The position numbers and the translations under genes are program-made. A model generated the notes under the pieces. The model did no database searches and was not told the DNA's origin. It worked only from the letters and a program-made list of their open reading frames with translations. From Ulva prolifera (taxonomy: Eukaryota > Chlorophyta > Ulvophyceae > Ulvales > Ulvaceae): 64,000 nt of DNA. Positions 7,315 to 63,601 of the stretch are shown here, piece after piece (the first letter of the stretch is position 1; every line of letters begins with the position of its first letter). The DNA is taken from assembly GCA_023078555.1 (NCBI GenBank), contig CM041198.1:6541924-6605923 (forward strand), written 5' to 3'.

Positions 7315-7426
7315 TATACTCGCTTGGGGTTGTTCCGTGGGCGTGTTGCTGTTGGTTCGGATGAGATTCGGTTTTGGTTTTTGTCTTCCCCCATTAACTC
7401 TTTTATAATATACTCTCTTGGGGTTG
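7315..7426 (+). mobile_element. 76-bp family B 3'-tail insertion with 18-bp target duplication
   Basis: TATACTCGCTTGGGGTTG at 7315-7332 is repeated with one mismatch at 7409-7426. Between them, 7333-7408 matches the end of the family B 3' untranslated region: ATTCGGATGAGATTCGG, then TTTTGGTTTTTGTCTTC, ending TTTTATAA. The long target duplication and the 5' truncation are as expected for target-primed reverse transcription by a non-LTR element. The parent type is the element at about 53679-57880. Confidence 0.9.
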
Positions 7427-7689
7427 CACGGCTTTCTCCGGCGGCGGGCGCTTTCTCACATATGCGACCGCGCACACGGGCATTGGAGGTTCACGATCAA
7501 TCGCGACTTGGGCGGCCGTCCAACTGCATGCAACAACTTGACGGCGCCCTGGCGTGCGCCCCCAGACACAGCCACATACACGGACGGCCGGACGGGCGGC
7601 TTCGCCTTGCCGGAATGTGTAACACCCCACGCCCTTCGTCCGTCGATGTGTGCCGGAAGCCACAAGACGTGGCATGCATGCATGCATGC

Positions 7690-7765
7690 ATCCGGGTAGG
7701 AACAGGTGGGATTCGAACTGGAGACATTGGGATGCATAAGTCGTTCGGTCTACCAACGCGTGCAC
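7690..7765 (-). other. tRNA-like sequence (tRNA relic or tRNA-derived SINE fragment)
   Basis: Read on the minus strand, this stretch has a good B-box-like element (AGTTCGAATCC) and, about 45 bases upstream, TTGGTAGACC resembling a D-arm/A-box. The anticodon and T stems do not pair properly, so this is not a functional tRNA gene as I fold it. A GCAT repeat follows its 3' side at about 7673-7690. Confidence 0.3.
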
Positions 7766-7885
7766 GACGGTCTTCATGCTGATATGCCGTGACGGGGTGT
7801 ATTTGAATCAGTGATGTGATGTGATGTCGGTGCGAATGCGGTGGCAATAAACAGCAGGTGTCGTTCGATACAGGAAATCCTCAAG

Positions 7886-10316
7886 ATGGCCGAAAGTACG
7901 GAAGCCGTGCAGGCGTCAAGTTTTAGCCCGGAAATGCCCTTCGGGGCATGTGACACCGTGGAAACTGTAGAGCTACTGAAGCGGACGCTGGTGTCGTATA
8001 ATATAGCCGTCGTAGCAGAGGCGTCGTCGTTGAATTCAAATGGCAGGGATTGCGTGTTTATCGCATTGAAGCTGGGTGTGCGGCCATCGGGACCGTCAAA
8101 TCAGCGCTTGGTGCGTGACATCGACAAGAACGAAATCGTGAACCTTGATGATATGACGGTTGATGACGTGAGGGAAGGTATCGCTGACCACATCGTGACG
8201 GTTTGGGAGAAGCCCGAACACTGGGCGACAGCCGCATTGAAAATACACATTGACAACGAGGCGCGTGCTTACTTAAATATGCAAACAGCGACGCTGTTGG
8301 AAGTTCGTGACAAATACTGTGCGGCAATCAAGGGTGTGAATGGGTGTGAGAAGATGTTTGGGGATCAGGCCTGTCAGCTAGCATTCGCTTCGCGCTATAG
8401 TAGCACCGTGGTGTGCTGGAGCCCACCCAGATCGACCGCGACCACCAAAAGCAATCGGTTATTTCGACCAATTATGTTCGGTGCCAATGCGGAAGTGGGC
8501 ACAAATACATCCCGGAGTCCATGTCTGATGATGTTGTATGTATTGGGTGAGGGTGTGGGACACGCAGAGCCTTTGATCGCAGGCGAGAGGAAGCATGGGG
8601 TACCATCAAGGTTCACAAGTGTGTCAACTTCGCGTGTTGTGTGTGGTTTTAGCTTGTAGTGTCCGTCGTTGTGATCGGAAGCTGGTGTGTTGCAGGCTGT
8701 ACGTTTCAGCAACTGCGAGATCCTAACTTCTGCACGACAACGCAACAACCCATTGTCACGGAAGCAGCAGCAGCACAGGTATGGTATCGGCGGCAGCCAG
8801 TGTTGTCGCAGAAGTAGCAGCCATCTCGGGCAGTACCGAGACACACAATGAGCATGTACTGGGTAAGTGCATGCCGTGTTTCAGGGAATCGAAGAGCGTA
8901 TGTCCGAGCTTTTTGAGGAGGGCATGCTAGATCCTACATTAGTAAGCATCACCTTTGGCAAGCTCGGCCATGAGATTCCAGACAGGTTCCGACGAAAGTT
9001 TACCGAAGCAATGAATGCTCTGGGTGCGAAAGGGTACATTGATGAGGGTGTTTGCATGACGGAGCGCGGTGACACGAACTACCGCAAGCATATTCAAGGA
9101 ATGGTGGTCATGGGCGTGAACAATGGGTTGAGCATGTCCGAAGCAAGTACGTGACTCGCATGAAGTGTCGTGGCAAGAGGCAAACAACCCACCTGCACAG
9201 TGGGGTGTTGTCTGCAGGCACGAAGATCCACAATTTATTGTTCTTGATGATGGATGTGGCCAGGCTAGACCCCAATGGCAATTTACAGCGGCAATCCAAT
9301 GCTGAGAATATTCGAATGAAGGTGTGCGCAGCACGTGAGCAATGGATTGCAACTCTTTCACACTTGTGCGTCAAGTCCTTCAAAGTTGGCGTATGCAGAT
9401 CATATGCCGTAAAGAAGATGATTCGGTGAAACGTGAAGCTATGCTCGGATATCCACTGAAAGAAATGGGCAACAGATGGTGTGAGACTGTGTTCAGACAA
9501 AACATGTCAGCACAACGGCTGCAGGAATGCCGTGATGCACATCAAGCTGTTGTGGGTTACAATGTATTCAAAAGACGATCAATGCTGCTTCCGACCGGAT
9601 GGCTTGACATTGTGGTGAAGTATGAACAGCTGTACTGTTTTCCGCTATCGACCATGATGCATGCCACACATGTTGTGCGATTCATGCTATTGGACGGGAG
9701 ATACGCATTTAGTCCGAAGTGGCTTGATGCATCGGGTGGTGCAGCCGTGGATCAAACTGCGCTGGAGTCATACAGACGGAACATCAACGCTTTACGACTG
9801 TCGATGGGGCATGTGTGGGTGAATGATATTTTCAATGTGTTCAACCGTGGCAGGAGCAACACCATCAATCGTGATCAATTCGACCAGCGAAATGCAGAAT
9901 ACGATTCCATGCCCTTAGAACAAATGAAGAAATATGTGCGTGCAGCCCGAAGCATTCTAGCTCGTGATCAAGCCGCTCGCATGGGCGAAGACCCATTGCG
10001 GAACTTGGCATTGTTGCAGATGCCGACATACGAAATAGATGACCTAGAGCTAGAGATAGCAACTCAGGGTGTGATGCACGTGCCCGATTGGATGGGTCCA
10101 GAGCATCCTGCAGCCGGGTTTGATGGTGCTTTGGAAGACGATGTACATGGCGCAGATGATGTTGAAGGTGATTTGATGGATGATGCTGCGGCAGCTGTTG
10201 CTTTCGCTCACCTTGATCCCGAGGAGGATGCACAACCGCTTGAGCGCATAGGAGATGTGCAGAACCGTTTGCAGGATCTGGATATGGAAGACGTAGATAT
10301 GGGTAGTGAGCAATGA
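7886..10316 (+). CDS. Spliced gene with an OTU-like cysteine protease domain
   Basis: Five exons can be placed: 7886 to about 8599 (donor uncertain: 8600, 8611, 8619 or 8621), 8710-8778, 8885-9146, 9218-9321 and 9399-10316. The introns at 8779-8884, 9147-9217 and 9322-9398 have GT-AG ends and matching phases (0, 1 and 0). Exon 1 resembles an OTU deubiquitinase. It has NGRDCVFIAL in the position of the DGxCLFRAL nucleophile motif, then FGDQACQLAFASRY like the central W/FGD-LQALA block, then LGEGVGHAEPL in the place of the catalytic His strand. The rest has no family I recognise. The protein ends in a strongly acidic tail (residues encoded from about 10070 to 10316). ATG at 7886 is the first in-frame ATG. 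The stop is 176 bases from the end of a convergent gene at 10493. OTU domains are known both in host deubiquitinases and in some large DNA transposons; I cannot decide between these. Confidence 0.6.
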
Positions 10317-10492
10317 ATTTTTACGGTGGTGGTCTCATGTGAACTGCGATGTGAACTCCAAAATCTGTGAATCTGTACTACACCTATGAGTGCAAATTCA
10401 ATGATAAACTGGTGAAAACGCACAATATAGCCATCTGAACGTAATCAATACAATTACACTTCATATCACTGGTCGCAATTGAGCAATTTCAT

Positions 10493-11523: not shown

Positions 11524-11946
11524 ATTACGCGTTTACATGCAGTGAACGCGATATATATCAATGTACCCGTAGCAGTTTTGGAATGGCTCTATGATCGCGG
11601 TGCAAGATGGCAGTGCAGCTGATAGCTGCCATCTGCCGAGATGCCATGTCATCTGCCGATGATGCCGTCATCTAGACAGGTCGAACATCGATCGAAGAGA
11701 GCAACATGCCAATTCGGGCGGAATGTGGCGGTCCGCCGGCGCTTTCGTGGCACTTAAGTAAGCTCTGACGAGCTTCGACTCTGACGAGCTTCGACTGTGT
11801 CCGGGGGCGCACGCCAGGTTAGATGGCCACTCAGCTACGACAGGCCAGGCTAACAGCATCATATTATATCGAAGGTGCATCCGCAATTCGCCTTTCAGGG
11901 CATCGTGAACGCTAGGTGTCATTCTGGGATCACGCAATCATCGAAG
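11524..11946. other. Short intergenic stretch
   Basis: No gene is visible. It holds small tandem echoes (TCTGACGAGCTTCGACT twice near 11762-11797; repeated CATCTGCCGA around 11630-11660). The 5' exon of the minus-strand gene ending at 10493 may lie here. Confidence 0.4.
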
Positions 11947-12014
11947 CGATCAGCACGGAGATACATATATATATATACATATATATAACAAATTACGATC
12001 AGCACGGAGATACA
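11947..12014 (-). mobile_element. 30-bp insertion between 19-bp direct repeats, probably a family A tail
   Basis: CGATCAGCACGGAGATACA occurs at 11947-11965 and, without mismatch, at 11996-12014. The 30 bases between them read on the minus strand as TAATTTGT followed by an AT-rich TA run, like the end of family A (CCTTTGTAAC then TA repeats). The second copy of the 19-mer directly abuts the 3' tail of the full family A element, so both insertions used the same target position. Confidence 0.7.
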
Positions 12015-15000
12015 TATATATAGTTACAAAGGACAGAGGCCGGGCAGCGAGCCGTTGCCAGGAACACACACGCAAATCCACTCACGCAGTCATGGCACTA
12101 GGCCGGGCACGAGCACGTACCACAGCTCGGCCGGTGATGCCAGCCAAAGATTGAAGCCCCGCACGGAGCACAAGAGCATTCCCCTTGCACAACGCCACAC
12201 TCAACCGGCGCAGAGCATTCGTCACAAACAAAGCACGGTTCACCTTACCACACCGAGACGCAACCTCCGCCAGCCGATTCAAGTGATTCATGGCAGGCCG
12301 TCCCAAGCGACCATGCGTCTCATGCGATAACGGCACGAAACTATACGCATCAGGGTCGTACAACCGATAAGCAGTGCGTTTCTGCACGTCCCGCGTCTCC
12401 GCAGCACCCCCGTCCTCGCGGGCCGCACGGCCGCAATAGGAACCAGCACAGGGGTTCACAACCGACACATCCCCTATGCACAAAGGGTCACCCGGCGGCA
12501 TAAACATGATGTCCCCCAGTTTCTCCTGGGCCACTGCCCTCAACACCTGCGCCAGCGCCGTTGCCTGCGCGGCAGCGGCCTGCTCCCCAGGCCCCGCCGG
12601 ACCCTGGCCACCTGGCGCCGCTGCCGCCGCCAGGGCCGCAGCCTGCGCCGCGTCTGGCGCGTGGCGCCCCATTTGGGCGCTGTGTCCGGCATCGGCGTCG
12701 GCGGCCGGAGCAGTCGCAGGTGCCGGCGCCGCGTCCGCACGCGCGACCGGCGGCGGCGGCGGGGCTGCAGGTACCGGCTCCGCGGGCAAGGTCGCCCCGC
12801 GCGAAGGGCCCGCGACCTGTGAGGGGGGATGGGGCGGCGAAGGGGGGGGGCGGGCCCGACGGGCCAGCATGGATCTGCCTCGGAGCGGCCGCGAGCCGCG
12901 CGCGGACGAACGGCGCTGTGCGCGGGATGCGCGTGGACGCCACACACGCGTGGGACCCGATCTCGCGCCATTGTTTTTCAACGATATTGTGGCGCGAAGT
13001 CCAGGTCCCCGCATTGTGTGTGCAATTCATCGCATGGTCGAGATCATGCGGCTGTATGAATGTGCCACATTCGCAGCGCGAGCCGACCGCATTGGGAGGG
13101 GCTGGGGACATGCCCAGGAGATACCTGATGCTCAGCATGATTTCCATGTCAGTCATGCGCAGCGCCTGGGACAGCGGCAGGGTGCTCGACCAAAGGGTGG
13201 CTGCACGGCAAGCACAGCTGCGAAGCCGTGCCAAGTTGCATGCACCCTCGAGCGTGGCGACGTCATGCCTGGCAAGCAGAGCTGCCCGGCGGCGCAGGGC
13301 AACCACCTTAGTGACACGCTGCTGCATACCAGGTAACACCTTGGCGATGGTGTCGCCGCTCGCCGGGCCGGGCAGCTCCGGATGGAGCTGCTGAGCGACG
13401 TTGAGGGCCTGCCAGGTTTCCTGCAAGTGTTGCCCGTGCGGCCCCCGATACGGCTGCATGCACTCGGGGCCTCCTGCGAATGCCTTTTGGCTCACCGCAG
13501 CTGCAGCGAGGTACGCTCCGTCCGCGACCTCCGGCGGCGTGGACATGATGCCCAGGCCTCCAAGGCGCGCTGGAAGGACGGCTTGTGCGGCCGCACGAAG
13601 GTCGTCCCGCGGGACGCGCATGATTACATTCACCGCAGCCAGGACAGACGCCTCCGTCCGGCGCATGTGATCGGAAATGTGCGCCCACGGCACCGCCCTG
13701 GCGTAGTGCAGCATACGGCGTTGGCAGGACATCGTGAGCAGCAAGAACTGGTCTTGCGCTTTCAGGGGCAGGCTCATCATCTTCTCGATGGTGGCGCACA
13801 CCTTGTCGGCCGTCGATTCCGCGTGCGCCGACTCGAACGCCGGGGTGCCAATGGGCGTGCCGGTGATGACGGTGCCCTCCGTGGCATGCGTTATGCCGAG
13901 CGTGGCCGCGACGGATCCCGCATGCTGGGGGTCGCGCGAGTAGGCCGTGCACTTGTGCAGCTGGGGCTCCAGCCCGAGGGGCTCTGCTGCCGAGACCAGC
14001 GCACGGAATGCGGCGGCGGCGTCCACGCGCTGCCCGGCGATGGTGCAGTCGTCATGATACGCCATGAGGGCGGCCGTGACCTCCCTCTCGGGTGGCTGGT
14101 GCTGGGCCTGCACTGCCTGGAGGGGGCCCTGGAGGGCCAGGGCGAAGAGCAGCGGGCTGATGGGGTCGCCTTGACGCACGCCGCTCTGCGACGTGATTGC
14201 AGCGGTGCCGGGCGGTGCGCCTTCGATGTAGAGATTTGCGGGGAACCTGTAAAGCATGGTGGCGAAGGGCAGCAGTGCAGGCTTGTGAGACGTAACGGCC
14301 TCCAAGATGGCTGCACGGGACATCATGTTGAATGCATTCTTCCAGTCCAGCTGCACAAGCACGACATCCTCCCACGCTTGCAGCACGGCGCGCGCAGCAT
14401 GGCCCAGGTTCTGCGCGCCCCCTGGCACCCCGACCCCCACCTGCAGCGGCGCGAGGGAGGCACCTAGGCCACTGCACAGGGTCATGGCGCACAGGCTTAC
14501 CAGGCGCTGCCACGTCTCTGCAATGGCGATAGGGCGGATGCCTCCCTGTGGCTTCTCCTGCGGGAGGAGGCGGCAGTCCAGCAAGCGCGGGAGGTGTGGC
14601 AGCCGGCCGGCGAGGGCCGCGTTCACGAAGCGGTGAATCTCCGTGAATGCGGCCGTGGAGGCCGTGCCGGCAGCCCGGATGTGCTCATACGTCCACCCCG
14701 ACAGGCCCGGGCCGCTGCCCTTCGGCAGCTTGTCGAGCAGGGCGAGGAGCGTCGCCTCGTCGATTTGCAGCGGGGGCGCGGGCTCGGCGGGCTGGGTGTC
14801 GGGGGGGAGCGCTTCTGCGGGATGCAGGTGCCGCAGCTCCTCATGCACTTCCGGGGTGTACCTGGCGATGGGCGGCGCCTCCACTTTCGCCGCGCCTTTG
14901 CGGACATTACCGTCGCTCAGTGACCTGTGGACAGAGCCCGCCAGGCGGCGATCCTGGTTCTGATTCATTCTGCGCTTCTGGCTTGGAGTGGGCTCCGCAA

Positions 15001-15900
15001 GCCTGGGCTCCTCGCCGTCCATGAACAGCGTGATGCATGTACGAGCGCGGCGCGCCGTGCCGTCCCCTCCCTTCAGCGACAGAACCTTACCAGGGAAGTC
15101 GAGGACGCGGCCAAGGGCCACTCGTGCTCGGTCGATGTTGGACGCGTCGCTGGCATCGTTGAAATCTCTGAAGAGCTCGGCCGTTGCGTCGCCGAACTCC
15201 TTATGGACGCTGTCCGGGACCTTCGGGGAGGGCCTGGGCCGGGCGGTGTAGTGGGCGGCGGCGGGGGCTTCGGTGATGTGACGGGGTGACTGATGGGGGT
15301 GCGGCTGGGCAGGCTGGGCAGGCTGCGGCTGGGCGGGCTGGGCTGGGGCGGGCTGGGCAGGGATGGGCTGGGCTGGGGCGGGTTGGGCTGGGGCGGGCTG
15401 TCGGGCCGGATGTCCGGCGGGCAGCACGCAGTGACCTGACCTCAAGCTTCTCTTCTGACCTCCCACACATTTATGCGCCTTAGGGGTCTTGGTAGAGCCG
15501 AATATGCCACAGTGAGAGCAGTACGCGGCATTGAGTTCGTGCAGCTTCGCAGTAGGCAGCCTCGGCCCGTCGCGATGGATTCCTCGAACGTGGGTGAACA
15601 GGCTTGAATGGGAGGAGAGAGTAGCGCTGCATCCGTCATATGGACACTGAAAGCTCATACGCAAGGACTCGTTCCGCTGGGAGCGGACACACTAACGGTG
15701 CAGTCTAACGGGCCATTAAACCGGCCAGACGGCACAAAACTAAAACAACAAACACACAACACTTTTAACGAATCAAATCTGCAGACCACCCGCGGCTAGT
15801 CCGCAGGATTGCCAGTGGGACTGCCGGACAACGGCACGCGGGCAGCCAGCGGCCCGCGCCGACATGACGGCTGCACAGCCAAGCGGGTCACCAGGAAGGC
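12015..15900 (-). mobile_element. Family A RLE non-LTR retrotransposon, nearly intact
   Basis: The minus-strand element has one long ORF (15664 to 12082) and a short 3' untranslated region. It ends CCTTTGTAAC followed by TA repeats at about 12015-12032. A 5'-truncated copy with the same C-terminal protein sequence lies at 53261-53606 on the other strand, which confirms the 3' end. The 5' boundary is not defined; I place it loosely upstream of the ATG. Domain order (zinc finger, RT, CCHC, restriction-like endonuclease) is that of R2/NeSL-type elements. Confidence 0.85.
12082..15664 (-). CDS. Family A polyprotein: C2H2 finger, reverse transcriptase, CCHC, RLE endonuclease
   Basis: The protein starts with a C2H2 finger (C7, C12, H25, H30) and a second Cys/His cluster (YCSHC through HKC, residues 48-66), then a PAQP-repeat linker. 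RT motif A is VQLDWKNAFN (about 438-446), the B region GVRQGDPISP (495-504), and the catalytic box AYHDDC (535-540), a YHDD variant of the usual YADD. A CxC...H...C zinc knuckle follows near 870-890. The endonuclease lies in the last 200 codons (GDIMFMPPGDP, then GDVSVVNP, then FVPLSHETHGRLG). The frame breaks once, by one base, inside or near the G9 run at 12842-12850; apart from that shift the element could be complete. The product would nick a target and prime reverse transcription there. Antisense ORFs over this region are composition shadows. Confidence 0.85.
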
Positions 15901-16547: not shown

Positions 16548-16626
16548 GTGCGATCCTATTTGAACGGTTGACAGCCGTCAACTCTTGTATCAATGAGAAT
16601 ACAGCGTGCCTGTACAGCAAGTCAGC
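16548..16626 (+). repeat. Left 79-bp terminal direct repeat of the DIRS-like element
   Basis: It begins GTGCGATCCTATTTGAACGG and ends CAGCAAGTCAGC. It contains the small inverted repeat GTTGAC-AGCC-GTCAAC. It is identical, base for base, to 22162-22240. Confidence 0.9.
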
Positions 16627-22161: not shown

Positions 22162-22240
22162 GTGCGATCCTATTTGAACGGTTGACAGCCGTCAACTCTT
22201 GTATCAATGAGAATACAGCGTGCCTGTACAGCAAGTCAGC
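22162..22240 (+). repeat. Right 79-bp terminal direct repeat of the DIRS-like element
   Basis: An exact copy of 16548-16626 in the same orientation. It is followed by ATATATATAC and then a 24-base segment (ACAGGCAGAATCGACAAATG...) whose near-exact reverse complement occurs at about 25519-25543. A minus-strand frame just inside the repeat (22148-21834) has no recognised family. Confidence 0.9.
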
Positions 22241-25200: not shown

Positions 25201-25640
25201 CAAACCAAGGCTCCAAGTAGAGCACAACCAACGCAATTGAGCACTCAACAGCAATAGCGATCCATTCGACCCGGTGTCACAATGAACCGGGGCGCTTGCA
25301 CACTCTCCGGTGTACTCGAGCGGTAACCCGACGTAAAGCGGCGTTCTCCATGAGAGTTAAATTCATCTGGCTGCGTGCATAGACCTCACCTGAAGCCCGG
25401 AAAAACACCAATGTGGAGCACAGAAGATGAGGACTTGAATGCAAGTGGGCTTTCAGCGTTTCGTGTTTTTGCCGAAAATACCTAGCTATAGGCTGCCATC
25501 GGAATACCTCCAGTCTGCTCATTTGTCGATCCTGCCTGTGATACCTCACGGCAGCTCGAGATCTTGCAGGTGCGCGAGACTTCTGCGACTCGAATTCAGG
25601 CCGCACATGATTCAAGGCACAGCAACCCTGAGAATGTGTG
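22241..25640. other. Intergenic region without a supportable gene
   Basis: Only short frames lacking domains are present. Codon patterns are weak and change strand and frame every 200-300 bases. I see no repeats with target duplications here. Confidence 0.5.
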
Positions 25641-25649
25641 ATTGGGTGT

Positions 25650-25716
25650 GTATGTGTTGCTGCTGATTCGGATGAGATTCGGCTGTGGTGTTTGTCTTCT
25701 CCCGTTCTCTTGTGTA
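25650..25716 (+). mobile_element. Family B 3'-tail copy
   Basis: TGATTCGGATGAGATTCGG followed by TGGTGTTTGTCTTCTCCCG and a TGTGTAA end matches the family B 3' untranslated region. The flanks show at best a 6-8 base imperfect duplication (AATGTGTGAT against AATGTGATGC), so insertion boundaries are not proven. Confidence 0.6.
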
Positions 25717-25789
25717 ATGTGATGCATTTTCGGTGCGGCACAAGTCTGCGGAACGGGACCGCGGTCCGGATGTGCGCGACCACATTCAA

Positions 25790-25848
25790 ACCAGTGCTTG
25801 GCATTTTCTTCTCCTGTAAACTCTGTTGTAAGACCAGTGCTTGGCATT
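25790..25848 (+). mobile_element. 27-bp family B tail insertion with 16-bp target duplication
   Basis: ACCAGTGCTTGGCATT at 25790-25805 is repeated exactly at 25833-25848. The 27 bases between read TTCTTCTCC...CTCTGTTGTAAG, aligning with the last bases of family B (TCTTCTCCCGTTCACTC...TTGTAA). This is a clean non-LTR-type insertion that kept only the terminal part of the element. Confidence 0.85.
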
Positions 25849-26002
25849 GCTCACATGCATTTGTCTCCGCTCAATGAAGGGATCTCGCCCTCGTGGGCCG
25901 GCGGGCTTCCCGTGAGCCGCTGCGCCGCTCAGCGGAATATTAATGGCCCGGTGAACGTAAGCAACTTGTGGGGAAACGCGGTTGTAATTAGATCGTGTGT
26001 GG

Positions 26003-26078
26003 AGGTGTTGCTGTTGATTCGGATGAGATTCGGGTTTGGTGTATGCCTTTTTTCGTGCACTCGATCCCGGTCGGGTTG
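26003..26078 (+). mobile_element. Divergent family B 3'-tail copy
   Basis: TGTTGATTCGGATGAGATTCGG (in part) is followed by a GGTTTGGTGTATGCC stretch and a mutated GTGCACTCGATC region, aligning with the family B end. A possible short duplication (GGTTGTA at about 25979 and 26073) flanks it but is too short to be convincing. Confidence 0.55.
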
Positions 26079-26454: not shown

Positions 26455-26605
26455 GGCCCGCCCGCTGCGACTGGCTACCTGTTCCCCGCCGCTGGCTACT
26501 TGTTCCCCGAGTCTCCGGGGATTCGACTGCCATACCGGTTTCGGTGTTTGTTTGTAAGACTGCCATACCGCGGACGAGGTCAACGTACACGGCCAGCAAC
26601 AGACC
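26455..26605. mobile_element. Internally deleted fragment of the family B 5' region
   Basis: Positions 26459-26492 match 57242-57271 (GCCCGCCCGCTGCGACTGG...), and 26515-26600 match 57943-58006 (CTCCGGGGATTCGACTGCC..., then GGACGAGGTCAA and CAGCAACAGACC). The two blocks keep the same order and orientation but lack the roughly 670 bases between them in the 57-58 kb copy. The junction lacks splice-site consensus, so a deletion is more likely than a spliced retrocopy. Confidence 0.7.
26525..26570 (+). mobile_element. 20-bp insertion with 13-bp target duplication
   Basis: GACTGCCATACCG at 26525-26537 is repeated exactly at 26558-26570. The 20 bases between, GTTTCGGTGTTTGTTTGTAA, match the family B end with the middle 18 bases skipped between two TTTGT repeats. 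The paralogous sequence at about 57957-57990 has one copy of the target and no insertion, giving a direct unoccupied-site comparison. Confidence 0.85.
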
Positions 26606-29677: not shown

Positions 29678-30124
29678 CAGAGTTGCATTAGTACGTTTCG
29701 TGATAAAGTACGTTAAGCAAAAATACGCGTATGGTACGTTGGCTATAATCAGGGGGGGTTGAAAAGTACGCTGTATAGGCTACATTGCTGGCTTGGCGCC
29801 GGAGGCGCCAAGCCCGTGATGACCAGCCGTGGTGCCACGGTCACTGTCATCTGTGCTTAGGCACATTATTGCAGAGAATAGTACAATGAACTAGTAGTCA
29901 ATCAGATGATCAGGTTACTCAGATTCATCGTGCAATGCAAGGGATGTTCAAAACCTTCTTTGGCCTTGTGGCTAGAGGTGCACCACAGTGCAGAGCTCCA
30001 GGCTCTCCGAAATCGGCCAAGTCCGAAACGTACGCGCGTACTGTACGCTGATAAAGTACGTAAGCATAAAATACGCGTATTAAACGTACCGAAATCGAAA
30101 GATACGCGTATTAATGCAACTCTG
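29678..30124 (+). mobile_element. hAT-type MITE, copy 1 (447 bp)
   Basis: It starts CAGAGTTGCATTAGTACG and ends with the inverse (CGTATTAATGCAACTCTG). The interior is rich in ACGCGTAT/GTACG motifs and has a GGCTTGGCGCC-GGA-GGCGCCAAGCC hairpin at about 29792-29816. Copy 2, inverted, is at 56154-56610. No coding capacity is present. Its flanks (AACATGCA left, CATGTTGT right) do not form a direct duplication, unlike copy 2. Confidence 0.85.
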
Positions 30125-31450
30125 CATGTTGTTTGTTATGATTCCTTGAAATTGTTCCGCCTGGTATAATCTACGTAGTTTATCACAAGTGCGCACTCAT
30201 GCATCAATGACAGATATGGAAAACAGACGGCTGCGTCTGCCTTGTTTTATGCTGCAAGGTGCTAAGTGGTGACCGGGGGCTACCATTCACACAGCTTTGT
30301 ACAGCTGCACGCCTGCAGACCTATGCCGCACAAATACAGCGCGAATAGACTTACAAAGTGCGCAGACGTATTCTGTGTACATGGCGATGTATAATGTCAT
30401 GAGTTCATATATCTGTCACGAGAACAAGCCAGATCGCGTACACGCCAGAACAGATCCACATACGCACTGGTGTGACCCGACCGTGCTATCACGCGAAATC
30501 AACTTAATCACATACAGGGGTTGGTGCTATGAAAGCCGCGAAACGCTGCTGCCGCCTGTGTGAACTGTCAGTTCAGCCCAACCGCGCTTACAGAGAAGCG
30601 ATCACAGGACATGGCACGCCCTGAAATCAAGTAAATAGCCTTTTCATATTCTCCAATCACCTGACTGCAACTCACAGGCATCAGTTCGCTTGTAGCACGC
30701 CGCATGAGCTGTGCACTGTCGTGACTCACTTCCACACGGCGCACCTGGACCTATGGCGCACTGCAAAGGCGCGCCGAACTTCATCACGCGAACCGATACA
30801 ACCTCTGTAAGACCACATTGAACAAACCAAGCCTGTCACAACGATACATATGCACTAAGTAACCTCAATACAACCTCAAACCTCCAAAATACCCCTTTCC
30901 GGAAAAGTTGTGGCTTAGCGCACCCCCAGGCGGCGCACCCTTCCCGCCGGCGCACCCAGGTGAGTCAGTCTGGCATCTGGCCTGTGATACTCTCCACCTG
31001 TTCTGCCGTACACACCCTCCGCCCACGAGCGCCGACTCTCACACCGTCGACACAAGCCAGCCCAGTCCATCTGTATAGGAAGGTCAAAGCCGGTCAGGCA
31101 GGTAGCGCCATAGGGCATTAACGCACCCGGGCCCGCGCACGCACCGCCACAACGGACAGTCCCGCACATGTACACATGCATGACCGCGCACTCCAGAACC
31201 CACCCCTGCGGCTGCCACAGATGTGCACAGGTTTCCACATGCCAATGCTTCATGACTCGAGTTCTCACGTTTCGCATCTTCAGTTGGCCAGTCCGGTTGT
31301 TTGCTGTTTGCTGAGGGTGCCCGGCAGTGGTGAGGTAAACTTGGTTTGCGTTCAAAACTGCAATGCTTTACAGTTTTGAAATATTTTGATAAGTATACAG
31401 ACTGGTGGTGGTGTGCAGGCCTACGTGTATACGACATATAGCTTTGAGTG
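30125..31450. other. Intergenic region without a supportable gene
   Basis: No domain-bearing frame occurs. It is the upstream region of the plus-strand cysteine-rich gene starting at 31451, so its promoter presumably lies here, but I see no defined element. Confidence 0.45.
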
Positions 31451-47417: not shown

Positions 47418-47594
47418 TCTGCGCCCGAGACTTTTACAAGACTCTTACAAACGAGTGAACGGGAGAAAACAAGCACTGAATCATCCAAATCAACTTCAAC
47501 ACACACACTCACACACACACACGCGAACACTACAGCCGCACTCACAACTCAGTCCTGCAGGATCGTGTCCTCAAGGCCCGCATCTGCGCCCGAG
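47418..47594 (-). mobile_element. 153-bp family B insertion with 12-bp target duplication
   Basis: TCTGCGCCCGAG at 47418-47429 is repeated at 47583-47594. The 153 bases between, read on minus, begin in the last codons of family B (AGLEDTILQD then stop, compare AGLEDAILPD at 53785). They continue through the TG-rich 3' untranslated region to GAACGGGAG-complement and TTTGTAA-like ends. It shows directly that the short tails derive from the RT-bearing element at 53-58 kb. Confidence 0.9.
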
Positions 47595-50245: not shown

Positions 50246-50249
50246 AGGA

Positions 50250-53606: not shown

Positions 53607-55661
53607 ATAGACGCAGATTTATGCTGCTTAACTGTGTGTTGTTCGCCCGCGATGGTGGCATCTGTTTGCTTTGTTATTTTACAAAAGAGTGAACGGGAGA
53701 AAACAAACACTGAAACCGAATCTCATCCGAATCAACATCAACATACACTCACACACACACGAACACAACAACCGCTCTCACAACTCAGTCCGGCAGGATC
53801 GCGTCCTCCAGGCCCGCATCATACCGCAACCCCTGCTCCCGAGTGATGACAAGCCCAGACTTCCGATACATATCCGCATTGCCACGCTGCAATGACACCG
53901 ACAACACCCGCAGCGCCCACTTGACAAACGCGCCCTTGGAGATGCGCCCACTGGTAGCGGCCACGTCCCCCATGGCCAACTGACCGACGAACCTCACGGT
54001 AGCCTTGCCCATGAAGCCACACGATTCGACTGCAAACGGAACAAACCGGAACGCGGCATGGTTCGGCACGTCCCGCCGGAAGCGGTCCCGCTTCCTGTCC
54101 TCCGCCCGCTCCGCCGTCGCACGCGTCTCCCGCGCCGCAGCGGCCACATACGCCGCAGGCGCATGTGTGACCACGACGTCCACGGCCGCCATCTCCAGGC
54201 GCGGCATGACCACGGCGATGTCCCCGCGCCGATTCAGCTCAACACCCGCGCCCCGCGCGAGGGCACAGTAGAGCGACTCCAGGGCAGACTGCAGTCCGGC
54301 GTAAGAGGTGACTAGGCGCAAGGCACGAGCCAGGTTATCATGGCGCATCTGGGTCTCCTTTGCCACCTTCTTGCAGACCATGGCATGGTCTGGTTCGGCG
54401 GCAACACTTGCACTGCATTTGCACGGAAGGCGGGGGACGTCCGTCGGGACGTGGAATCGAAGGTGGTGCCACACCGCCAGGACAAACATGGCGTCGCCCA
54501 GGGTGAGAACGCCACCCAGTAGAGTGCAGAGGAAGGCGCCTGCAGGCCCCCCCGACGCGCTCCTGAGCCACGCCGCTTCCCGCCTGCCGGCCGGCGTGTC
54601 GAGGTCGATGCCCTGTAGCAGGAGTCAGGCCGCATGGTCCGCGACCGCGCACCCCACCTCACGCTGGACCGCCTGCAGCTTGCCCGAGACGAACTTGTCC
54701 GGTGGGTCATGGGCATCCGCCTCCCACCCCAGCAGCTAATGCAGCTCGTCGAACATGCCCTGCCAGCGCTGCAACAGACTGCCCCGGCTGTGGCCGCGGA
54801 GGGGCCGGAGCAGGTCCGGGCAGCCGGCGAGGTTGCGCTCGGCCATGCCGGCCCCCGACAAGAAAGCCACCAGCATCGTCAGTCCGAGCCCGCCATGCCT
54901 GACAGGGGACATCAGCCGATAAGACAGCCGCTGCATCTTAGCGTCAGTGGCCAGGTTGTCAGACGCGGCAGCTGCCTCCGCAACCTCAGGCGGCAGGCAC
55001 AGGATTGCGGTGGCACCGCGACACACAGCGGCCTCCGCCCTGCGCATGTGCGGCTCGAGCACGGCATACGGCACCGTCCGCATCAGGTGCGTCATGCGCA
55101 CACTCAGGGACACACGCAGCAGGAGGAACTGCGCCTGCACTGAGAGCGGGATGCGCACGAGGGTCTCGACGAGGCCCTCAACCTCGCGTGCCCGCGCGTC
55201 CAGCGCCTTGGCGACGTACTCCGGGGTGTCCAGCGGCATGCCGACTGCCTTAAAGCCCGCGTGCAGATCCCGAATGCCGAGCTCTGCGGCCACAGCGGCT
55301 GCCGCCTCGGCGTCGGCGCTATGGACGCCGCATTTGGTCGGGTTCACCTCCAGCCCGATGCTGCGCACGCCGTCAGCGTCCACGCACAGCCGCCGGAACA
55401 CGGCAGCTCCGGCCGCGAGGTCGCCCGCGATGCTGATGACGTCCAGGTACGCCACCACAGGGGCGCCGGCGCCTGACGCGTCGACGCACTCCAGGACAGG
55501 CTGCAGGGTCAGCGCAAACAGGAGGGGGCCCAGGGGGTCACCTTGGCGGACGCCACGTTGGCAGAGGACTGGCTCGACGTCCTCCGGAGCGCCGGCGATG
55601 TGCAGCGGGGTCCCGGCGCCGTACGCCCTTTGCGTGAAGGGCAGCAGCGCCGGGGCACGCT

Positions 55662-55725
55662 CCTTCACGGCAGTTTTTACAAAAGAGTGAACGGGAGAAA
55701 ACAAACACTGAAACCTTCACGGCAG
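55662..55725 (-). mobile_element. 40-bp family B tail inserted in the family B RT domain
   Basis: CCTTCACGGCAG at 55662-55673 is repeated exactly at 55714-55725. The 40 bases between are, on minus, TTTCAGTGTTTGTTTTCTCC through CACTCTTTTGTAA plus extra A: the last bases of the same element family in the same orientation. Insert plus duplication (52) shifts the frame right after RT motif A. The two flanking reading frames align perfectly once the insertion is discounted. Confidence 0.95.
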
Positions 55726-56145
55726 CGAACATGGCCGCGCGGTCGAGGCTATTGAAGGCGTTCTTCATGTCGACCGAGAACACCGAAGCGCCCTCGGCGA
55801 GAGCAGGATACAGGCCGTGCACGACTGTCTCGGTCCCACCCCGCGTGCCAACGCCGACCTGCAGCGGCGCCAGTCTCTCTCCGATGCCGCGGCCGTACTC
55901 GCGTAGGGCGCACATTGCCGCGAACCGGTACCAGGTCTCCCCCACCGCGATCGGCCGTGTGCCACCGTCCGGCTTCTCCAGGCCGGTGAGGAGCCCGTCC
56001 AGCAGGAACGTCTCCCGTGGCAGCATGCCGGACAGCATGTGGTTGACAACTGCCAGCAACGCGTCGGTGGCTGCGTCTGAGGATTGGCATGCCGCGCAGA
56101 TCATCTCGAACGTCCAGCCGGACGGGCCGGCCGACGACGTCGACC

Positions 56146-56618
56146 CTCGATGGCAGAGTTGCATTAATACGCGTATCTTTCGATTTCGGTACGTTTAATA
56201 CGCGTATTTTATGCTTACGTACTTTATCAGCGTACAGTACGCGCGTACGTTTCGGACTTGACCGATTTCGGAGAGCCTGGAGCTCCATGGAGCTCTGCAC
56301 TGTGGTGCACCTCTAGCCACAAGGCCAAAGAAGGTTTTGAACATCCCTTGCATTGCATGATGAACCTGAGTAACCTGATCACCTGATTGACTACTAGTTC
56401 ATTGTACTATTCTCTGCAATAGTGTGCCTAAGCACAGATGACAGTGACCGTGGCACCACGCCTGGCCATCACGGGCTTGGCGCCTCCGGCGCCAAGGCAG
56501 CAATGTAGCCTATACAGCGTACTTTTCAACCCCCCCAGATAATAGCCAACGTACCATACGCGTATTTTTGCCTAACGTACTTTATCACGAAACGTACTTA
56601 TGCAACTCTGCTCGATGG
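56146..56618 (-). mobile_element. hAT-type MITE, copy 2 (457 bp) with 8-bp target duplication
   Basis: CTCGATGG flanks both sides (56146-56153 and 56611-56618). The element 56154-56610 begins CAGAGTTGCATTAATACG and ends with the inverse; it is the reverse-oriented sister of 29678-30124. The 8-bp duplication and CAGAG terminus are hAT hallmarks. It is inserted in the family B element just upstream of the RT GPSGWT block. Confidence 0.9.
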
Positions 56619-57880
56619 TGTGCGCTCACGGCGGCCACCGCCGCCACCAGCGCCTCCCGTGTCAGGCACAGAGCGGGGACATCCGGGTTCGGCTCCAGAG
56701 GAGCCCGCGGATCTGCTGGTGGGAACAATGCGCGCAGACCGGCTGGACCTCCAGGGACCGCGCATCTGCGGGCTTGCTATCCTTCAATCCGCGGCCAGCT
56801 TTGTGAATGGAGCGCTTGATGCGAAAGCATCTGTCGATGTGTTGCGCCTGCAGCTGATCTGCAGACATGGGAGCTTTGCGTCTCCCGGGCCAGTGGCCGG
56901 GCAACGTGTCCTCCCACATCTCCACGGGCAGCCCAAGGGCGTAGTCGCGGCAACGCGCTGCCGCCGCTTCCTCAGAGCGCCGCCCCCTGCTGTACGCCAG
57001 CAGGCGCATGGGCAGGCGCATGAGCTCCTCGAAAGCGGCAACAACCTCCTCTCGCGCGCTGTCGCCGCGCGCATGCGTGCACGCGTTGGCCACCAGCTCC
57101 CACACCCTTGTGCACGACTCGGCCCACCCCAGCCGGGCGGCCGGGGGGACATGCTGCGGCAGGTGCAGCCGTGGGGCCGCGTTGGCCCGCTGCACTGGCG
57201 GGGCTGATGCAGCCGCACGGAGCCCGGCCTGTCAGCGGGGGGCCCGCCCGCTGCGACTGGCTACCTGCTCCCCGTCCCTTGCCTTTCTTCTTACCGCCCC
57301 GCCGGGCACGCTGCTGCTTGGCGCTACCGCCCGTGCCCCCACTGGCCTGCGCAGGGGGGGGTGCGCCGGCGGCTGCTGCGGCTTGGCGATGTGGCCGGCG
57401 GGTAGCAGACTGCTTGGCTGCTGCGAGGCCAGGAGGCGGGGGAAGAGGCGGAGAAGGGGTGTCGGTGGAAGCGGGCGGGGGTGGATGGTGGCACTGTGCA
57501 GTGCAGTGAGCCCTATCGTGTTGGTCGTTGTTTGTGGCTGGCGGCTGCTGATGGGCAGCCGTGGCGAGCTGAGTCTCACCAGGCACCACATTCAGCGCCG
57601 ATTTTACCTGTTTGCTTGTATCTGCCGAGAGATGAGCCTCGGTAGCTTTCCCGCTGGCAGGTGCTGCGCGCCGGCGCTTGGGCTGTGGAGACCCGCACGG
57701 TGACTCGCGCTGCACGACTGCGAGCTGTCCATTGTTGTAATTAACAACTTCATTTGTATCTAGGATGCTACGTTGGTCTGTAATCAATAGGCTAGGTCGC
57801 ACGGGCGACTGCGAAGCATGCTGGCGGTTCAGGTCGCTCAGCTTTGCCTTTGACGGCTCATTCCGCTTCGGCTTGCCCAT

Positions 57881-59040
57881 GGGATCCTAGCATTGCAGAT
57901 ATGGCCTAACAAGTATTATCTAGTGCCAAGCGCCGAGCCTCCGGGGACTCGACTGCCATGCCGTGGACGAGGTCAATCGACATGACCAGCAACAGACCAC
58001 CAACATCGGTCGGAGACTTGAACTTCAGAAATGTGTCAGGAATCTTTTGTAGTACTCAGTACGGTGCTTGTCCGCGTTGCGCCGGCGGCGCTACCCGTCT
58101 CCCGACGTTGTCAATTCAGCAACATATCGCCTAATGTTAACGCGATAATGTGGCATAAAATCTTCCCCCTGCTTCACTGGAGATCACGGGTTTGCTTGTG
58201 CGTGCACTTTGAGTCAGTCATCAACTTGAAAATGGCCGTGCGTGACAAGTTTGCACAACGCAGGTGGAGGGCCTCCGAGATTCGCGCAGCTGCCTGAGAC
58301 TATGGTTGCCTGGTGGGTTACCCCTTTGGCATGTGATTCGGCATTGATGTGTGCGTTGCCAATGCTGTCTTAGCGATACGGCCGTTTAACGCGAGTTTTG
58401 TTGCATCCTGATTTGCATCTGGGAGACAACGGTGTTGACTCAGTTCTGGGGTTTCTTGGTGCGGTCGCAAATGGAGGATTGGTCGTCAAGGCACCAAGGC
58501 ACATAAGTGCGCCCTGAAAGCAATCTTCCTTGTCATATCAAGAAATTTGATCCTATGTCTGGACCGCTCCTTACAGGCATGCGAGGTGTGCGTTATGCAA
58601 TGCTGTCACAAAAGCGTTACAAGACGTTATCATCCGCTGCTGAGATACATACAAACACATCATGCGGTCCAAAAATAAACAGGAAACCCAAAAAAGGAAC
58701 ACATCATGCAAAGCTCGTCTCTTCCCTCATACGGCAGCGTCAACAGCAAGCCAACTAGGCTTGCTGCCGCGGCAGTCCAACACTAGTAGTACTAGTAGTG
58801 TTGGACTGAAGCAATGACCTGCCGTAATGCAGCTCTGCCAAATGAGCCTGGCAATACCAATGCACATGTGCAGCCGCATATTCTCAGTCTAGACAACACA
58901 CTTGCAAACCTTCACTGAGGACACGGCTGCACTCAGTGCCAAAATCATACAAAGGCCGCACGCGCTGCAGACGCATGCGAGGTCCATGACACCAGCAGTA
59001 CTGATGCCATCGAGGGACGGCCATTGCTTGCAATTGCAAC
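57881..59040. other. Intergenic region; inverted repeat at 58773-58808
   Basis: No gene is visible. Positions 57943-58006 are shared with 26515-26600. At 58773-58808 the 13-base arms CAGTCCAACACTA / TAGTGTTGGACTG flank a 10-base TAG-rich centre. The right part is the 3' flank of the gene ending at 59041. Confidence 0.5.
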
Positions 59041-62000
59041 CTAGCTTGTGGAGAAGGTGAAGACATTTCCGACGGGGGGTGTTTCCGAGTCAGCAGGGGG
59101 AGGCGTCGGTGGAGGATTCACTACAGGCGTGGTTGGAGGCGTCACGGTAGCGGCGGCTTGAGGCGGTGTCGCGGGTGGCTCCTCTGCCGAGTCAGGTGAC
59201 GGGAACGTCCGCGATGCAGTCGGTGGAGTTGTGGTCGGCGTAGGACCACTGCCAACGTTGAACGTGAAGATGGGCGATGGAGCATTGGTCGGGGCAGGCG
59301 GTGGTGAGGGAGGGGGCGGCAGCGGCTGTGCCGGCGGAGGAGGGGGTGGCACCTCCGGTTCCGCTGGCGGCGTGGTCGGTTGAGACGGCTCCGGAGGGGT
59401 CGGGCTGGGGGTGGGGACAAAGGGAGGGGTTGGAGGCGGGACTGGGGCCGGGGGTGGGTCCACCGGAGGAGCAGGCGCTGGTGGTGTCGGCGTTGGTGTC
59501 GGGGGAGGCGGGCTCGGTGCGGGCCCTCCGCCGATGTTGAATCTGAAGATGGGTGGTGGACTGACCGGTGGAGGCGCTGGCGTCGCCGGTGGGGCTGGCA
59601 CAGGAGACGGCAGAGGTGTTGGCGGAGGGGTCACCGGGGGTGGCAGTGGTGGCAGTGGTGGCGGTGGTCCGAAATCGGGGAAGGTACAGGTATTGTTGGC
59701 TAGGCACTCTGAGGGCGCGAAGCATGGCTCGGGGTTTGCAGAACAGCAGCGAGCCCCGCCGTATCCACAGGGCTCGCATATGTCGTCATTGCAGTCGGAG
59801 TAGGACGAGCAGGCAAAGGAGTCAATGGCAGTATCGCAGCAGGGTCTGCCGACCCGGCCACATGTCTCTGCTCCGCACACACCGTCCACGCAGGGCGCGC
59901 CGAGGCGACACCGGTCGTTCAAGCAGCACTGTAGGCCCTGGAAGCCACATCCTTCGCAACGCCCGTCCGTGCAGACCGTGCCTTGCACACAGTTGTCGCC
60001 GGGGCAGCACACATCAAACCGGAAGCCGCAGCCACGCGCCAGCACCGGGAGCGCGTTGCTGCAGACGTCGTCGTCTCCGCACACCGCGGAATCACCATAG
60101 CACTCATCCGCGATGTAGCGGTTCCGGTTCAGCGGGCAGCAGGGGTCTCCGTCGAAGCCGCAGCGGCCACAGGTGCCGTCGAGGCACTCTGTGCCGTAGT
60201 CACACGGATTAAACCGCTCCTCACGAGTGCAGCAGGGCTGGCCGGCCTCCCCACACGTCAGAGCAGTGCATGTGTAGCTGTCCGTGTCACACAAGGAGTC
60301 GGCGCAGTTGGCGCCATTGCAGCAGCGCAGGCCGGCAATCCCGCACTCGCTCGAACAGATGCCTCCGGCGTCGGTGTCGCAGAAGCTGAATCCACCAACG
60401 CACCTGTCGCCATCGCAGCAATCATACCCGCTGATGCCACATGTTGAGCAGACGCCCTGGTTGCACACGCTGTATGGCTCAGGCCCACATTCGTCATATG
60501 CTGCAAACTCGGGGTCTTCGGGCCCACAGCAGCGGAGGCCTCTGTTCCCGCAATCGGCGACTGCATGCACAGAAGATTTCTGACTGCGAGGCGGCATGAT
60601 CACAAGTGGAGAGGGGCTCATGTCAACATCGCCAGGCATCATCGACATCTAGGCGGGCACTAGCCTGATTCACTGCGTAAAACACTGTGTTAGAAAACCC
60701 GTGTGCAACCGCAAACACTGTGCGGTCACCAGGATTGCATATGCATATGTGGTCCTGGTGACCGCAGCATCGTGCGTGGGCGCTGCCCCACCGCTCGCGG
60801 TCGCACACGCCACGGCCGCCGGTGGATTGCTCAGTGCAGTGGTGTGTGCGTGCAGGCTCATGTCGCCGGTCATACAAACCTGTGACTCCTTTCAGGCTCG
60901 GTGCATGTGTGCTTACGTAAGGGTTAGGGCGCACCGACACGCGGCGGCAGCGGCATCGGCTCCGGCGTTGGCGGTACAGGCGGAGGCAGTGGGCGCGAGT
61001 TGGTGCAGACGTTTTCGGCTGAGCAGTCGCCGCCAGACGGGCCAGTGAAGATGGGTGGCAGGCATTGGTATGGGGATCCGGGGTACAGCTCAGGGCAGCA
61101 GTCCAGGCCGTCGTAGCCGCAGCGCGTGCATGTGTCAGTCGCCGTGTCACAGAAGGTCTGGCCGTAGGACGAACATTCGTCGACGTCGTCCCGTTCTCCG
61201 GCGTCGCAGCAGCTCAGGCCGGCCTCTCCACACGTCACCGGAACGCAGGTGTTGGACACGGCATCGCACTGTGTAGGGCTGTTGAAGCCTCCGAAACACG
61301 GCCTGGATCCGCGTGCTGTGTCGCAGCACGGCTGATTCAGCCCGCCGCACACCTCGCAGACACCTGACTGGCAGGTGGTTACGACAGGCAAGCCGAAGCA
61401 GCCGCGGGCCTCCCCGCTGCTGTCCGGGCAGCAAGGCAGACCGGGTCCGCCGCAGGTGGTCTCGCAGATGCTGTTGGCATTGCAGGTGGTTCCATCCAGG
61501 TCAAAGTCAGGGTCGAAATTGTAGTAGCCGTCAGCATCGCAAGCGCTGCCTGGACAGCAAGGAGCGCCTGGGACGCCGCAGACAGTGCAGATATTTGTCA
61601 CGGAGCACGTGCTGCGGTTTTCCTCGCAGCCTGATGGACCGACGAAGTTGTTGAACTCTCCCTCGCCGCAGCATCGCTGGCCTGGGACCCCGCATGTGAC
61701 CGCTGCATGAAGTTAGATCTCAGGTTAGATATCATTTTGAGGAAGGAGTTGTACGAGACAGTACAGCGAGACAGTACAGAGGCAAGCAGGAGCTGAAGGC
61801 GTAGGGCCGACGCTGGAACAAGAGTAACGGAAAATAGCTAGGCTCGTGCGTCATCACAGGCGCCTGCGGCTCCGCAGTCAGAGCAGTCATGGCATCAACT
61901 AGCCACATTATGTGCCTTACCAACGGCAGAGGCATAGGTGTCAGCAAAAGAAAACAAGTCCGAAGAAGATGAAAGTCGAAAAAAGCGACAGGTAAGCAAA

Positions 62001-62610: not shown

Positions 62611-63333
62611 CCTCGCGTGTCTCTGATTGACGTCGCAGCTGTTGTCCAGGCGGGAGTGGTCACTTGCAGGAGGCCGTGGAATCTTCGCTGCATGCCAGAG
62701 ACGTGAGTGAGATCTAGACCTTCGGAGCCGGATTCGAATGAATCTGAGCACTTAGAATTGAGGGCCTGCGGGCTCATCAGAGGCTCATGGGAGCCTGAGA
62801 GGCGGGGCCCATGCATGCGCATATGCGCAAGTGCACATGAATTTAACGCGTTAACGCGTGTGCTGTGCCAGTGCTGTGGTGCTGCTGTGCTGCTGTGCTG
62901 TGCACCCACGTGACTGCATGCATGCAGTCAGGGTACCCGTAAACTGGTGATGCTCTTTGGTGCGATGCTCAGAGCTAGCTCACCCTGAGCAGGATGCAGG
63001 ATGCATGCACGGCATATGCCCAAGTGCAGCTAGCCGCGCTTGGGCATATATATGTTCTGCATGCACCGCTGGGCAGGCTGCTTGACACATCATGCGCCTT
63101 CAGAGAGGGGTGAAAGGCCCCAATTACAGTTGGTTGCCAATAGTGTTGGCAGTGGCACTACCATTTGGGGTGGGGTGTCAACATGTTATACACCGGCGCT
63201 TCATTCCGGAATTCCTCAGTGGATACAGGGTTATCTGACAACCTGACGGTTGTCATATATTTGGAGTTAAGTTGCGTGGGCGATGCAGCATGGCGGTTCT
63301 TGCAGTGTGCCGCGAGAACACTAAAAGGCTAAC
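62611..63333. other. Upstream region of member XY2
   Basis: It contains the presumed promoter, a palindromic TTAACGCGTTAA at about 62842-62853, and a hairpin (ATATGCCCAAG at 63014-63024, CTTGGGCATAT at 63039-63049). No gene was found. Confidence 0.45.
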
Positions 63334-63440
63334 GAGCTAACAGTTCGTGTGTGCATGTGTTGATGTTGATTCGGATGAGATTCGGTTTTGGTGTTTGTCT
63401 TCTCCCGTTTGCTCTTTTGAAATATTTGAAGAGCTAACAG
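63334..63440 (+). mobile_element. 87-bp family B tail insertion with 10-bp target duplication
   Basis: GAGCTAACAG occurs at 63334-63343 and 63431-63440. The insert 63344-63430 reads GTTGATTCGGATGAGATTCG, then TTTTGGTGTTTGTCTTCTCC, ending in a mutated CTCTTTTGAAATATTTGAA. The tail is A/T-extended relative to other copies. Confidence 0.85.
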
Positions 63441-63497
63441 AGCATGGCCGCCTCCCACTGCCCAGGCTCAGGTTTGCCATCGCAGACCGTCTGTCGT

Positions 63498-63601
63498 GGT
63501 CTGCGAAAATTACAAAAGAGTAAAAGAGAGAAGACTAATACCACAGAAAAAATTCATCCGAAGCAACAGCAACATACACGCGCTCACACGGTCTGCGAAA
63601 A
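63498..63601 (-). mobile_element. 80-bp family B tail insertion with 12-bp target duplication
   Basis: GGTCTGCGAAAA occurs at 63498-63509 and 63590-63601. The insert 63510-63589 is the family B 3' end on minus (plus reads TTACAAAAGAGTAAAAGAGA...). It lies only 57 bp from the preceding copy but in opposite orientation. Confidence 0.9.

What the first reader, a model, noticed from the sequence alone, without database searches (positions are those of the whole stretch)
7315..63601. A set of very short retroposon insertions (20-153 bp), each with its own target duplication
Seven sites (7333-7408, 25806-25832, 26538-26557, 47430-47582, 55674-55713, 63344-63430, 63510-63589) carry only the terminal bases of family B between 10-18 bp direct repeats. 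Non-LTR elements often make 5'-truncated copies, but copies of 20-40 bp are normally invisible because they fall below repeat-detection length. Seven in 64 kb implies that reverse transcription commonly aborts within tens of bases, or that an RNA tail is used directly. Such insertions act as a source of small frame-changing indels.
Basis: partly seen in the sequence, partly recalled or inferred. Interest (0 to 1): 0.88.

Follow-up and report, generated by a model that had tools for sequence, protein, structure and literature searches.

The report
Mostly tiny copies of a retrotransposon
A jumping element in this genome often copies only its last few dozen letters into a new site, leaving clean insertions of about 20 to 80 letters, so reverse transcription here seems to be cut short very early.

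Summary
All seven sites carry 3'-terminal pieces of one LINE between 10-18 bp direct repeats. The site at 55674-55713 lies inside an older LINE copy and is empty in all 29 other copies fetched.

The terminal 18-mer occurs 1005 times exactly genome-wide, its reversed control 0 times. In the first 100 listed places, homology is under 80 nt in 69. Of 93 testable, 50 have a target-site duplication (TSD) at score 8 or more, against 0.2% of 558 swapped flanks. A related family behaves alike on a small sample.

Shared 3' ends, scattered 5' ends, abutting TSDs and 5' microhomology (32 of 43, null 25%) fit target-primed reverse transcription with 5' truncation. Loss per nucleotide is about ten times higher in the last 130 nt than beyond.

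The element is R2-like. Microhomology is longer in short inserts (p 0.005; n 30 and 13), which favours early capture of the cDNA end; this step is inferred. The kind of event is known; ten library searches showed no family dominated by copies under 80 bp.

The parts
7333..7408 (+). 76-nt 3'-terminal LINE insert ending TTTATAA; TSD 18 bp, 1 mismatch
25806..25832 (+). 27-nt insert ending TTGTAAG; TSD 16 bp exact
26538..26557 (+). 20-nt insert, 3' end with an internal gap relative to the parent (by eye); TSD 13 bp exact
47430..47582 (-). 153-nt insert with a doubled TTGTAA tail; TSD 12 bp exact
55674..55713 (-). 40-nt insert inside the RT region of an older LINE copy; TSD 12 bp exact; site uninterrupted in 29 of 29 other fetched copies
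63344..63430 (+). 87-nt insert ending TTTGAAATATTTGAA; TSD 10 bp exact
63510..63589 (-). 80-nt insert ending TTTTGTAA; TSD 12 bp exact
53678..58006 (-). long copy of the parent LINE (family B), interrupted at 56154-56610 by another repeat and at 55674-55713 by the 40-nt insert
   Evidence: matches L150 7680-3865; RVT_1 at 24.3 bits, under the curated cut-off of 29.6
12024..15664 (-). related LINE (family C) with a 1058-residue open frame, RT domain, CCHC-like and RHN motifs by eye, 3' end CTTTGTAA
53260..53593 (+). 334-nt stretch of family C 3' end, 99% identical to 12010-12343; TSD not tested
   Evidence: (I1)
25636..25717 (+). family B 3'-end copy; TSD not tested
25978..26062 (+). family B 3'-end copy; TSD not tested

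Best explanation
These are 5'-truncated insertions of an R2-like LINE, made by target-primed reverse transcription. Shown from sequence: a shared 3' end at TTGTAA, as a rule without poly(A); scattered 5' ends; TSDs of 8-22 bp that abut the truncated end; and 5'-junction microhomology, mostly 1-3 nt. Inferred: the element's own endonuclease nicks the target, the RT starts on the RNA 3' end near UGUAA, and within tens of nucleotides the cDNA end pairs by a few bases with the exposed other target strand and is joined there, ending synthesis. The few events that pass this early window go on for hundreds to thousands of bases.
For: Seven of seven window sites. Empty site in 29 of 29 other fetched copies (one search found 28; the last, L032, was read in the wrong orientation there and is shown). 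TSD score 8 or more in 50 of 93 against 0.2% of 558 swapped flanks. 42 distinct breakpoints among 53 TSD-supported inserts, 43 of 53 with no extra 5' sequence. Microhomology of 1 nt or more in 32 of 43, null 25%, mean 1.81 against 0.34. Genome counts of exact 18-mers at rising distance from the 3' end: 1005, 613, 287, 40, or losses per nt of 0.0159, 0.0093 and 0.0012. Microhomology longer in inserts under 80 nt (mean 2.27, n 30) than in longer ones (0.77, n 13), p 0.005. No unusual RNA fold in the last 115 nt, z +1.14. Family C: 10 of 20 sampled copies under 100 nt; TSD score 8 or more in 6 of 14 testable against 5 of 182 swapped pairs. Family C RT nearest R2 among solved structures, E 7e-6 against 0.36 for L1.
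Against: 43 of 93 testable copies lack a TSD at score 8 or more, so some may be old, nested or made another way. At score 7 the TSD-supported fraction is lower for copies under 80 nt (37 of 69) than for longer ones (17 of 24), and lowest in the 18-29 nt class (6 of 14). The microhomology trend rests on 13 long inserts and may be lowered there by reference mismatches. The endonuclease motif was read by eye; no Pfam model matched it and structure prediction never ran. For family B itself the R2 matches are weak (E 0.0044 and 0.0053) and rank below an unrelated enzyme at 0.0011. Exact-match counts depend on how conserved each 18-mer is.
Confidence: 0.87

Rival explanations
1. The RT is simply poorly processive during its first ~100 nt (an initiation-to-elongation transition), and the microhomology is only how the stopped end is later joined. 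This shares the main explanation and differs in the cause of the stop.
For: Falling loss rate with distance; 10 of 53 inserts have 1-6 extra 5' nt.
Against: Longer microhomology in the shorter inserts is not predicted. A reference title seen reports high processivity for a non-LTR RT; the paper was not read.
Confidence: 0.4
2. Short RNA templates (3' UTR decay fragments) are copied to their ends.
For: Most inserts lie inside the roughly 106-nt 3' UTR (lengths; stop codon by eye).
Against: Breakpoints are scattered (42 distinct of 53); run-off should give extra nucleotides rather than microhomology, and 32 of 43 have microhomology.
Confidence: 0.1
3. A SINE family that shares the LINE tail.
For: Many copies are 50-80 nt.
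Against: No common 5' head: 43 of 53 are LINE sequence up to the TSD, with 42 distinct starts among 53.
Confidence: 0.02
4. Chance repeats, or deletion remnants of longer insertions.
For: 43 of 93 lack a TSD at score 8 or more.
Against: Swapped flanks give 0.2%; TSDs abut the truncated end; 27 of 29 other copies align to the occupied site with a gap of exactly 52, insert plus one TSD copy.
Confidence: 0.02

Closest known systems
5'-truncated human L1 insertions (PMC2912911, passages read)
   Same: Shared 3' end, TSDs, 5' microhomology in nearly 80% there and 32 of 43 here; extra 5' nucleotides 14.6% there, 10 of 53 here.
   Different: L1 has poly(A) and a different endonuclease (recalled); in this family 37 of 53 TSD-supported inserts are 80 bp or less.
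R1 and R2 of Drosophila (PMC2718515, passages read)
   Same: Truncated copies with 1-5 nt microhomology or non-templated nucleotides at the 5' junction; R2-like RT.
   Different: R1/R2 insert at fixed rDNA sites; this family is dispersed with varied TSDs.
Zebrafish ZfL2-2 in DT40 cells (PMC2666801, section 10 read in full; passages)
   Same: Truncation partly set by host end-joining: loss of Ku70 or Artemis gives longer inserts.
   Different: Different LINE clade (recalled) and host; there the NHEJ defects did not change the junction microhomology.
Zepp / Zepp-like LINEs of green algae (PMC8226300, passages read)
   Same: Frequent 5' truncation leaving mostly 3' ends, with nesting.
   Different: Zepp is an L1-type element in clusters; this one is R2-like and found on C1-C9.
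Hebe of the rotifer Adineta vaga (PMC2861651, passages read)
   Same: Non-LTR element in which short 3'-end copies were looked for with a 3' UTR probe.
   Different: There few if any extra copies were found: the opposite of this family.

Membership tests
5'-truncated LINE insertions (TPRT products) | Shared 3' end with variable 5' ends | tested here: met
   42 distinct breakpoints of 53
5'-truncated LINE insertions (TPRT products) | Target-site duplications abutting the insert | tested here: met
   50 of 93 against 0.2% null; 7 of 7 in the window
5'-truncated LINE insertions (TPRT products) | 5'-junction microhomology | tested here: met
   32 of 43, null 25%
R2-like LINEs with restriction-like endonuclease | Reverse transcriptase nearest to R2 | tested here: met
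   RVT_1 above cut-off in L150, L151 and family C; family C best solved relatives R2, E 7e-6; family B only E 0.0044, below an unrelated hit
R2-like LINEs with restriction-like endonuclease | C-terminal CCHC and RHN/RHD motifs with D-x13-D | tested here: inconclusive
   Seen by eye (motif definitions recalled; D-x13-D in family B only); no Pfam match; fold not predicted
R2-like LINEs with restriction-like endonuclease | No apurinic-type endonuclease domain | tested here: met
   Only RVT_1 found in the frames scanned from L150, L151 and P0001; a diverged domain could be missed
R2-like LINEs with restriction-like endonuclease | Sequence-specific insertion site (usual, not universal; recalled) | tested here: not met
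   Dispersed with varied TSDs; family C copies lean to ACATAC-like targets
SINE | Common non-LINE 5' head | tested here: not met
   43 of 53 have no extra 5' sequence, the other 10 have 1-6 nt

The most novel reading that the evidence does not exclude
In this LINE the insert length is set by microhomology capture of the growing cDNA during an early vulnerable window, not by RT fall-off. This makes ultrashort insertions, down to about 12-20 nt, the main product of the element and a steady source of TSD-flanked small insertions, most of which bring in a UGUAA motif.
Probability: 0.35. Interest if true: 0.75.

Novelty: new variant of a known kind. Interest (0 to 1): 0.6.

Why it matters
What decides where a LINE insertion stops is, to my knowledge, an open question. 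This family offers about a thousand natural events with the same exact 3' end, most of them short in the sample, so stop position, microhomology and TSD can be measured base by base. It also suggests that repeat annotation with a length cut-off would miss most of such a family's insertions, and that some small insertions of 20-80 bp flanked by repeats are retrotransposition.

Tried and rejected
3' transduction as the source of the 0-12 nt tails after TTGTAA: the three tails of 8-12 nt that I searched genome-wide (L099, L066, L076) were found only at themselves. One 9-nt tail (L080) shares its first 8 nt with the flank of a long copy and with one further old copy. So the tails may be non-templated, transcribed flank, or both; unresolved. 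An unusual RNA fold as a block was not found. The SINE reading was rejected.

Limits of the sample. The sample used is the first 100 listed places of the terminal 18-mer, all on C1, so it favours young copies and cannot see inserts under 18 nt. Of the 53 inserts counted once, two pairs (L113/L119, L114/L115) look like duplicated loci, so about 51 independent events. A second scan covered 233,850 bases: the window plus loci most of which were fetched because they hold this 3' end, so it is not independent. It found exact TSDs at 84 of 272 TTGTAA (0.31) against 0.044 per occurrence for 20 of the 59 other permutations, one of which (TGTAAT, 22 hits) overlaps the real motif. The shortest insert there with a clear reading was 12 nt with a 19-bp TSD (L073), not examined further; rows of 7 nt (L029) and 13 nt (L064) are ambiguous. 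In one search the first family C reference was cut to 17 nt by mistake and only the second was effective. The string count missed L032 because it was in the wrong orientation (corrected). Structure prediction never started. Passages of PMC2657916 held nothing on this point.

Full report
What was checked. The seven sites were re-read with their flanks. All seven hold a piece of the same 3' end between direct repeats of 10-18 bp, at the coordinates given. Exact abutting 10-mer repeats at the same spacings occur at 14 of 200,000 random positions. A blind scan of the 30 TTGTAA motifs in the window recovers five of the seven; the 59 other permutations average 0.34.

The parent. The window lies in an unnamed assembly of 88.9 Mb in 44 contigs; that it is a eukaryote is my inference from size and content. 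A long parent copy runs on the minus strand at 53678-58006, in two blocks separated by a 457-bp insert. Other copies carry a reverse transcriptase domain above Pfam's cut-off; the window copy's own stretch scores below it. The 3' end reads ...CTCCCGTTCACTCTTTTGTAA, as a rule without poly(A). By eye the coding region ends at LEDAILPD, about 106 nt before the 3' end, so most short inserts are purely 3' UTR. A related family at 12024-15664 has a 1058-residue open frame whose RT is nearest to R2 among solved structures (E 7e-6; L1 0.36). For family B the R2 matches are weak and rank below an unrelated enzyme. By eye both families have a CCHC-like cluster followed by RHD or RHN, and family B also D-x13-D. 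This suggests a restriction-like endonuclease; the motif definitions are recalled and no Pfam model matched.

Empty site. The 40-nt insert at 55674-55713 lies in the RT region of the long copy. The search found 41 matches, of which 30 became loci, the site itself and 29 others. All 29 contain the uninterrupted sequence: 28, and L032, which has a local duplication and was misoriented there. In pairwise alignment 27 of 29 differ by a gap of exactly 52, that is 40 plus one 12-bp TSD; L057 shows 53 and L032 24.

Genome-wide. The exact terminal 18-mer occurs 1005 times and its reversed control 0 times. The first 100 listed places, all on C1, were fetched in 86 stretches. Homology to the parent reaches 49 nt in 62 of 100, 80 nt in 31, 131 nt in 20 and 440 nt in 7. 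Seven of the 100 were too long to test for TSDs. Of the other 93, 50 reach TSD score 8 and 54 reach score 7, while swapped flanks reach either in 0.2% of 558 trials. Of 53 supported inserts counted once at score 7, 37 are 80 bp or less; TSD length has median 13, range 8-22. Supported fractions at score 7 by length class were 6 of 14 (18-29 nt), 15 of 25 (30-49), 16 of 30 (50-79), 14 of 21 (80-179) and 3 of 3 (180-449). So the shortest copies are supported somewhat less often, and the rest of them may be older or made otherwise.

Length law. Counts of exact 18-mers at 1-18, 32-49, 114-131 and 1728-1745 nt from the 3' end are 1005, 613, 287 and 40. Loss per nucleotide falls from 0.0159 to 0.0093 to 0.0012. 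One constant rate does not give this. Conservation of each 18-mer also affects the counts; the C1 sample gives a similar fraction at 49 nt (62% against 61%) and a lower one at 131 nt (20% against 29%).

Junctions. Among 43 inserts without extra 5' bases, 32 share 1 nt or more with the target (null 25%), mean 1.81 against 0.34; the other 10 of 53 have 1-6 extra nucleotides. Microhomology is longer in inserts under 80 nt (2.27, n 30) than in longer ones (0.77, n 13; p 0.005). The terminal 115 nt has no unusual fold (z +1.14).

The 3' side. After TTGTAA come 0-12 further nucleotides. Three of three longer tails searched are unique in the genome, while one 8-nt tail occurs at three copies. One of the 100 C1 copies, a long one in L080, has 13 nt and then a run of about 54 A after TTGTAA; none of 28 flanks checked among the first 30 loci has 8 or more A within 45 nt. 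UGUAA is the likely poly(A) signal of most chlorophytes, peaking about 17 nt before the cleavage site (PMC1868727, abstract and passages). The spacing in that one copy fits such a signal. If so, the usual tails could be transcript between signal and cleavage site from which the RT starts short of the poly(A); non-templated additions, as reported for R2 (PMC2718515, passages), remain possible. That the host is a green alga is only a guess from this motif.

Second family. For family C the terminal 18-mer has 854 exact places. I fetched 20, chosen by hand from the first 24 of the 100 listed. Ten of 20 are under 100 nt and six run to the end of the fetched stretch. TSD score 8 or more occurs in 6 of 14 testable, two of which (L159, L160) look like duplicates, against 5 of 182 swapped pairs. 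The targets are ACATAC-rich, so this is weaker evidence.

Mechanism and comparison. The anatomy is that of 5'-truncated LINE insertions by target-primed reverse transcription. Human truncated L1 shows nearly 80% microhomology and 14.6% extra nucleotides (PMC2912911, passages); R1 and R2 show both (PMC2718515, passages); loss of Ku70 or Artemis lengthens ZfL2-2 inserts, though without a change in junction microhomology (PMC2666801, section 10). In Adineta's Hebe a 3' UTR probe found few if any extra short copies (PMC2861651, passages). What differs here is the length: most sampled events stop within the 3' UTR. My preferred reading is early capture of the cDNA end by microhomology; a slow-starting RT is a close rival. 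Ten paper searches (one search was on poly(A) signals) listed no report that I could recognise of a LINE family dominated by copies under 80 bp. I saw listings and passages, and one section in full, and that library lacks most subscription journals, so this is not proof of absence in print.

Verdict. It is an extreme variant of a known process.

Noticed in passing
L080 (C1:1592187, minus strand copy): A long LINE copy with 13 nt and then about 54 A after TTGTAA, as if a polyadenylated transcript had been copied once with its tail.
   Followed up: partly
window 56154-56610 and 29678-30125: A ~450-bp repeat with terminal inverted repeats (CAGAGTTGCA), 97-99% alike, one copy inside the LINE flanked by CTCGATGG on both sides; looks like a non-autonomous DNA transposon.
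   Followed up: partly
window 43204-45210 and 59096-61486: Similar stretches about 16.28 kb apart, 76-83% identical in several blocks, a likely gene duplication.
   Followed up: no
window 16548-16626 and 22162-22240: A 79-nt repeat, 100% identical, 5.6 kb apart.
   Followed up: no
window 4090-4874: 88% identical to L150 2664-1871, upstream of the LINE there and next to an open frame that resembles an integrase by eye; perhaps an LTR retrotransposon fragment.
   Followed up: no
L067, L080, L112, L126, L135; also L094 and L110: 3' ends of the LINE cluster within hundreds of bases, and TSDs of L094 and L110 contain TTGTAA themselves, as if inserted into earlier LINE tails.
   Followed up: partly
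L155-L174: Many family C copies are followed by CTACATAC-like sequence, suggesting a target preference.
   Followed up: partly
window 26538-26557: The 20-nt insert lacks an internal ~18 nt between T-rich stretches of the parent 3' end (by eye), as if the RT slipped or jumped.
   Followed up: no
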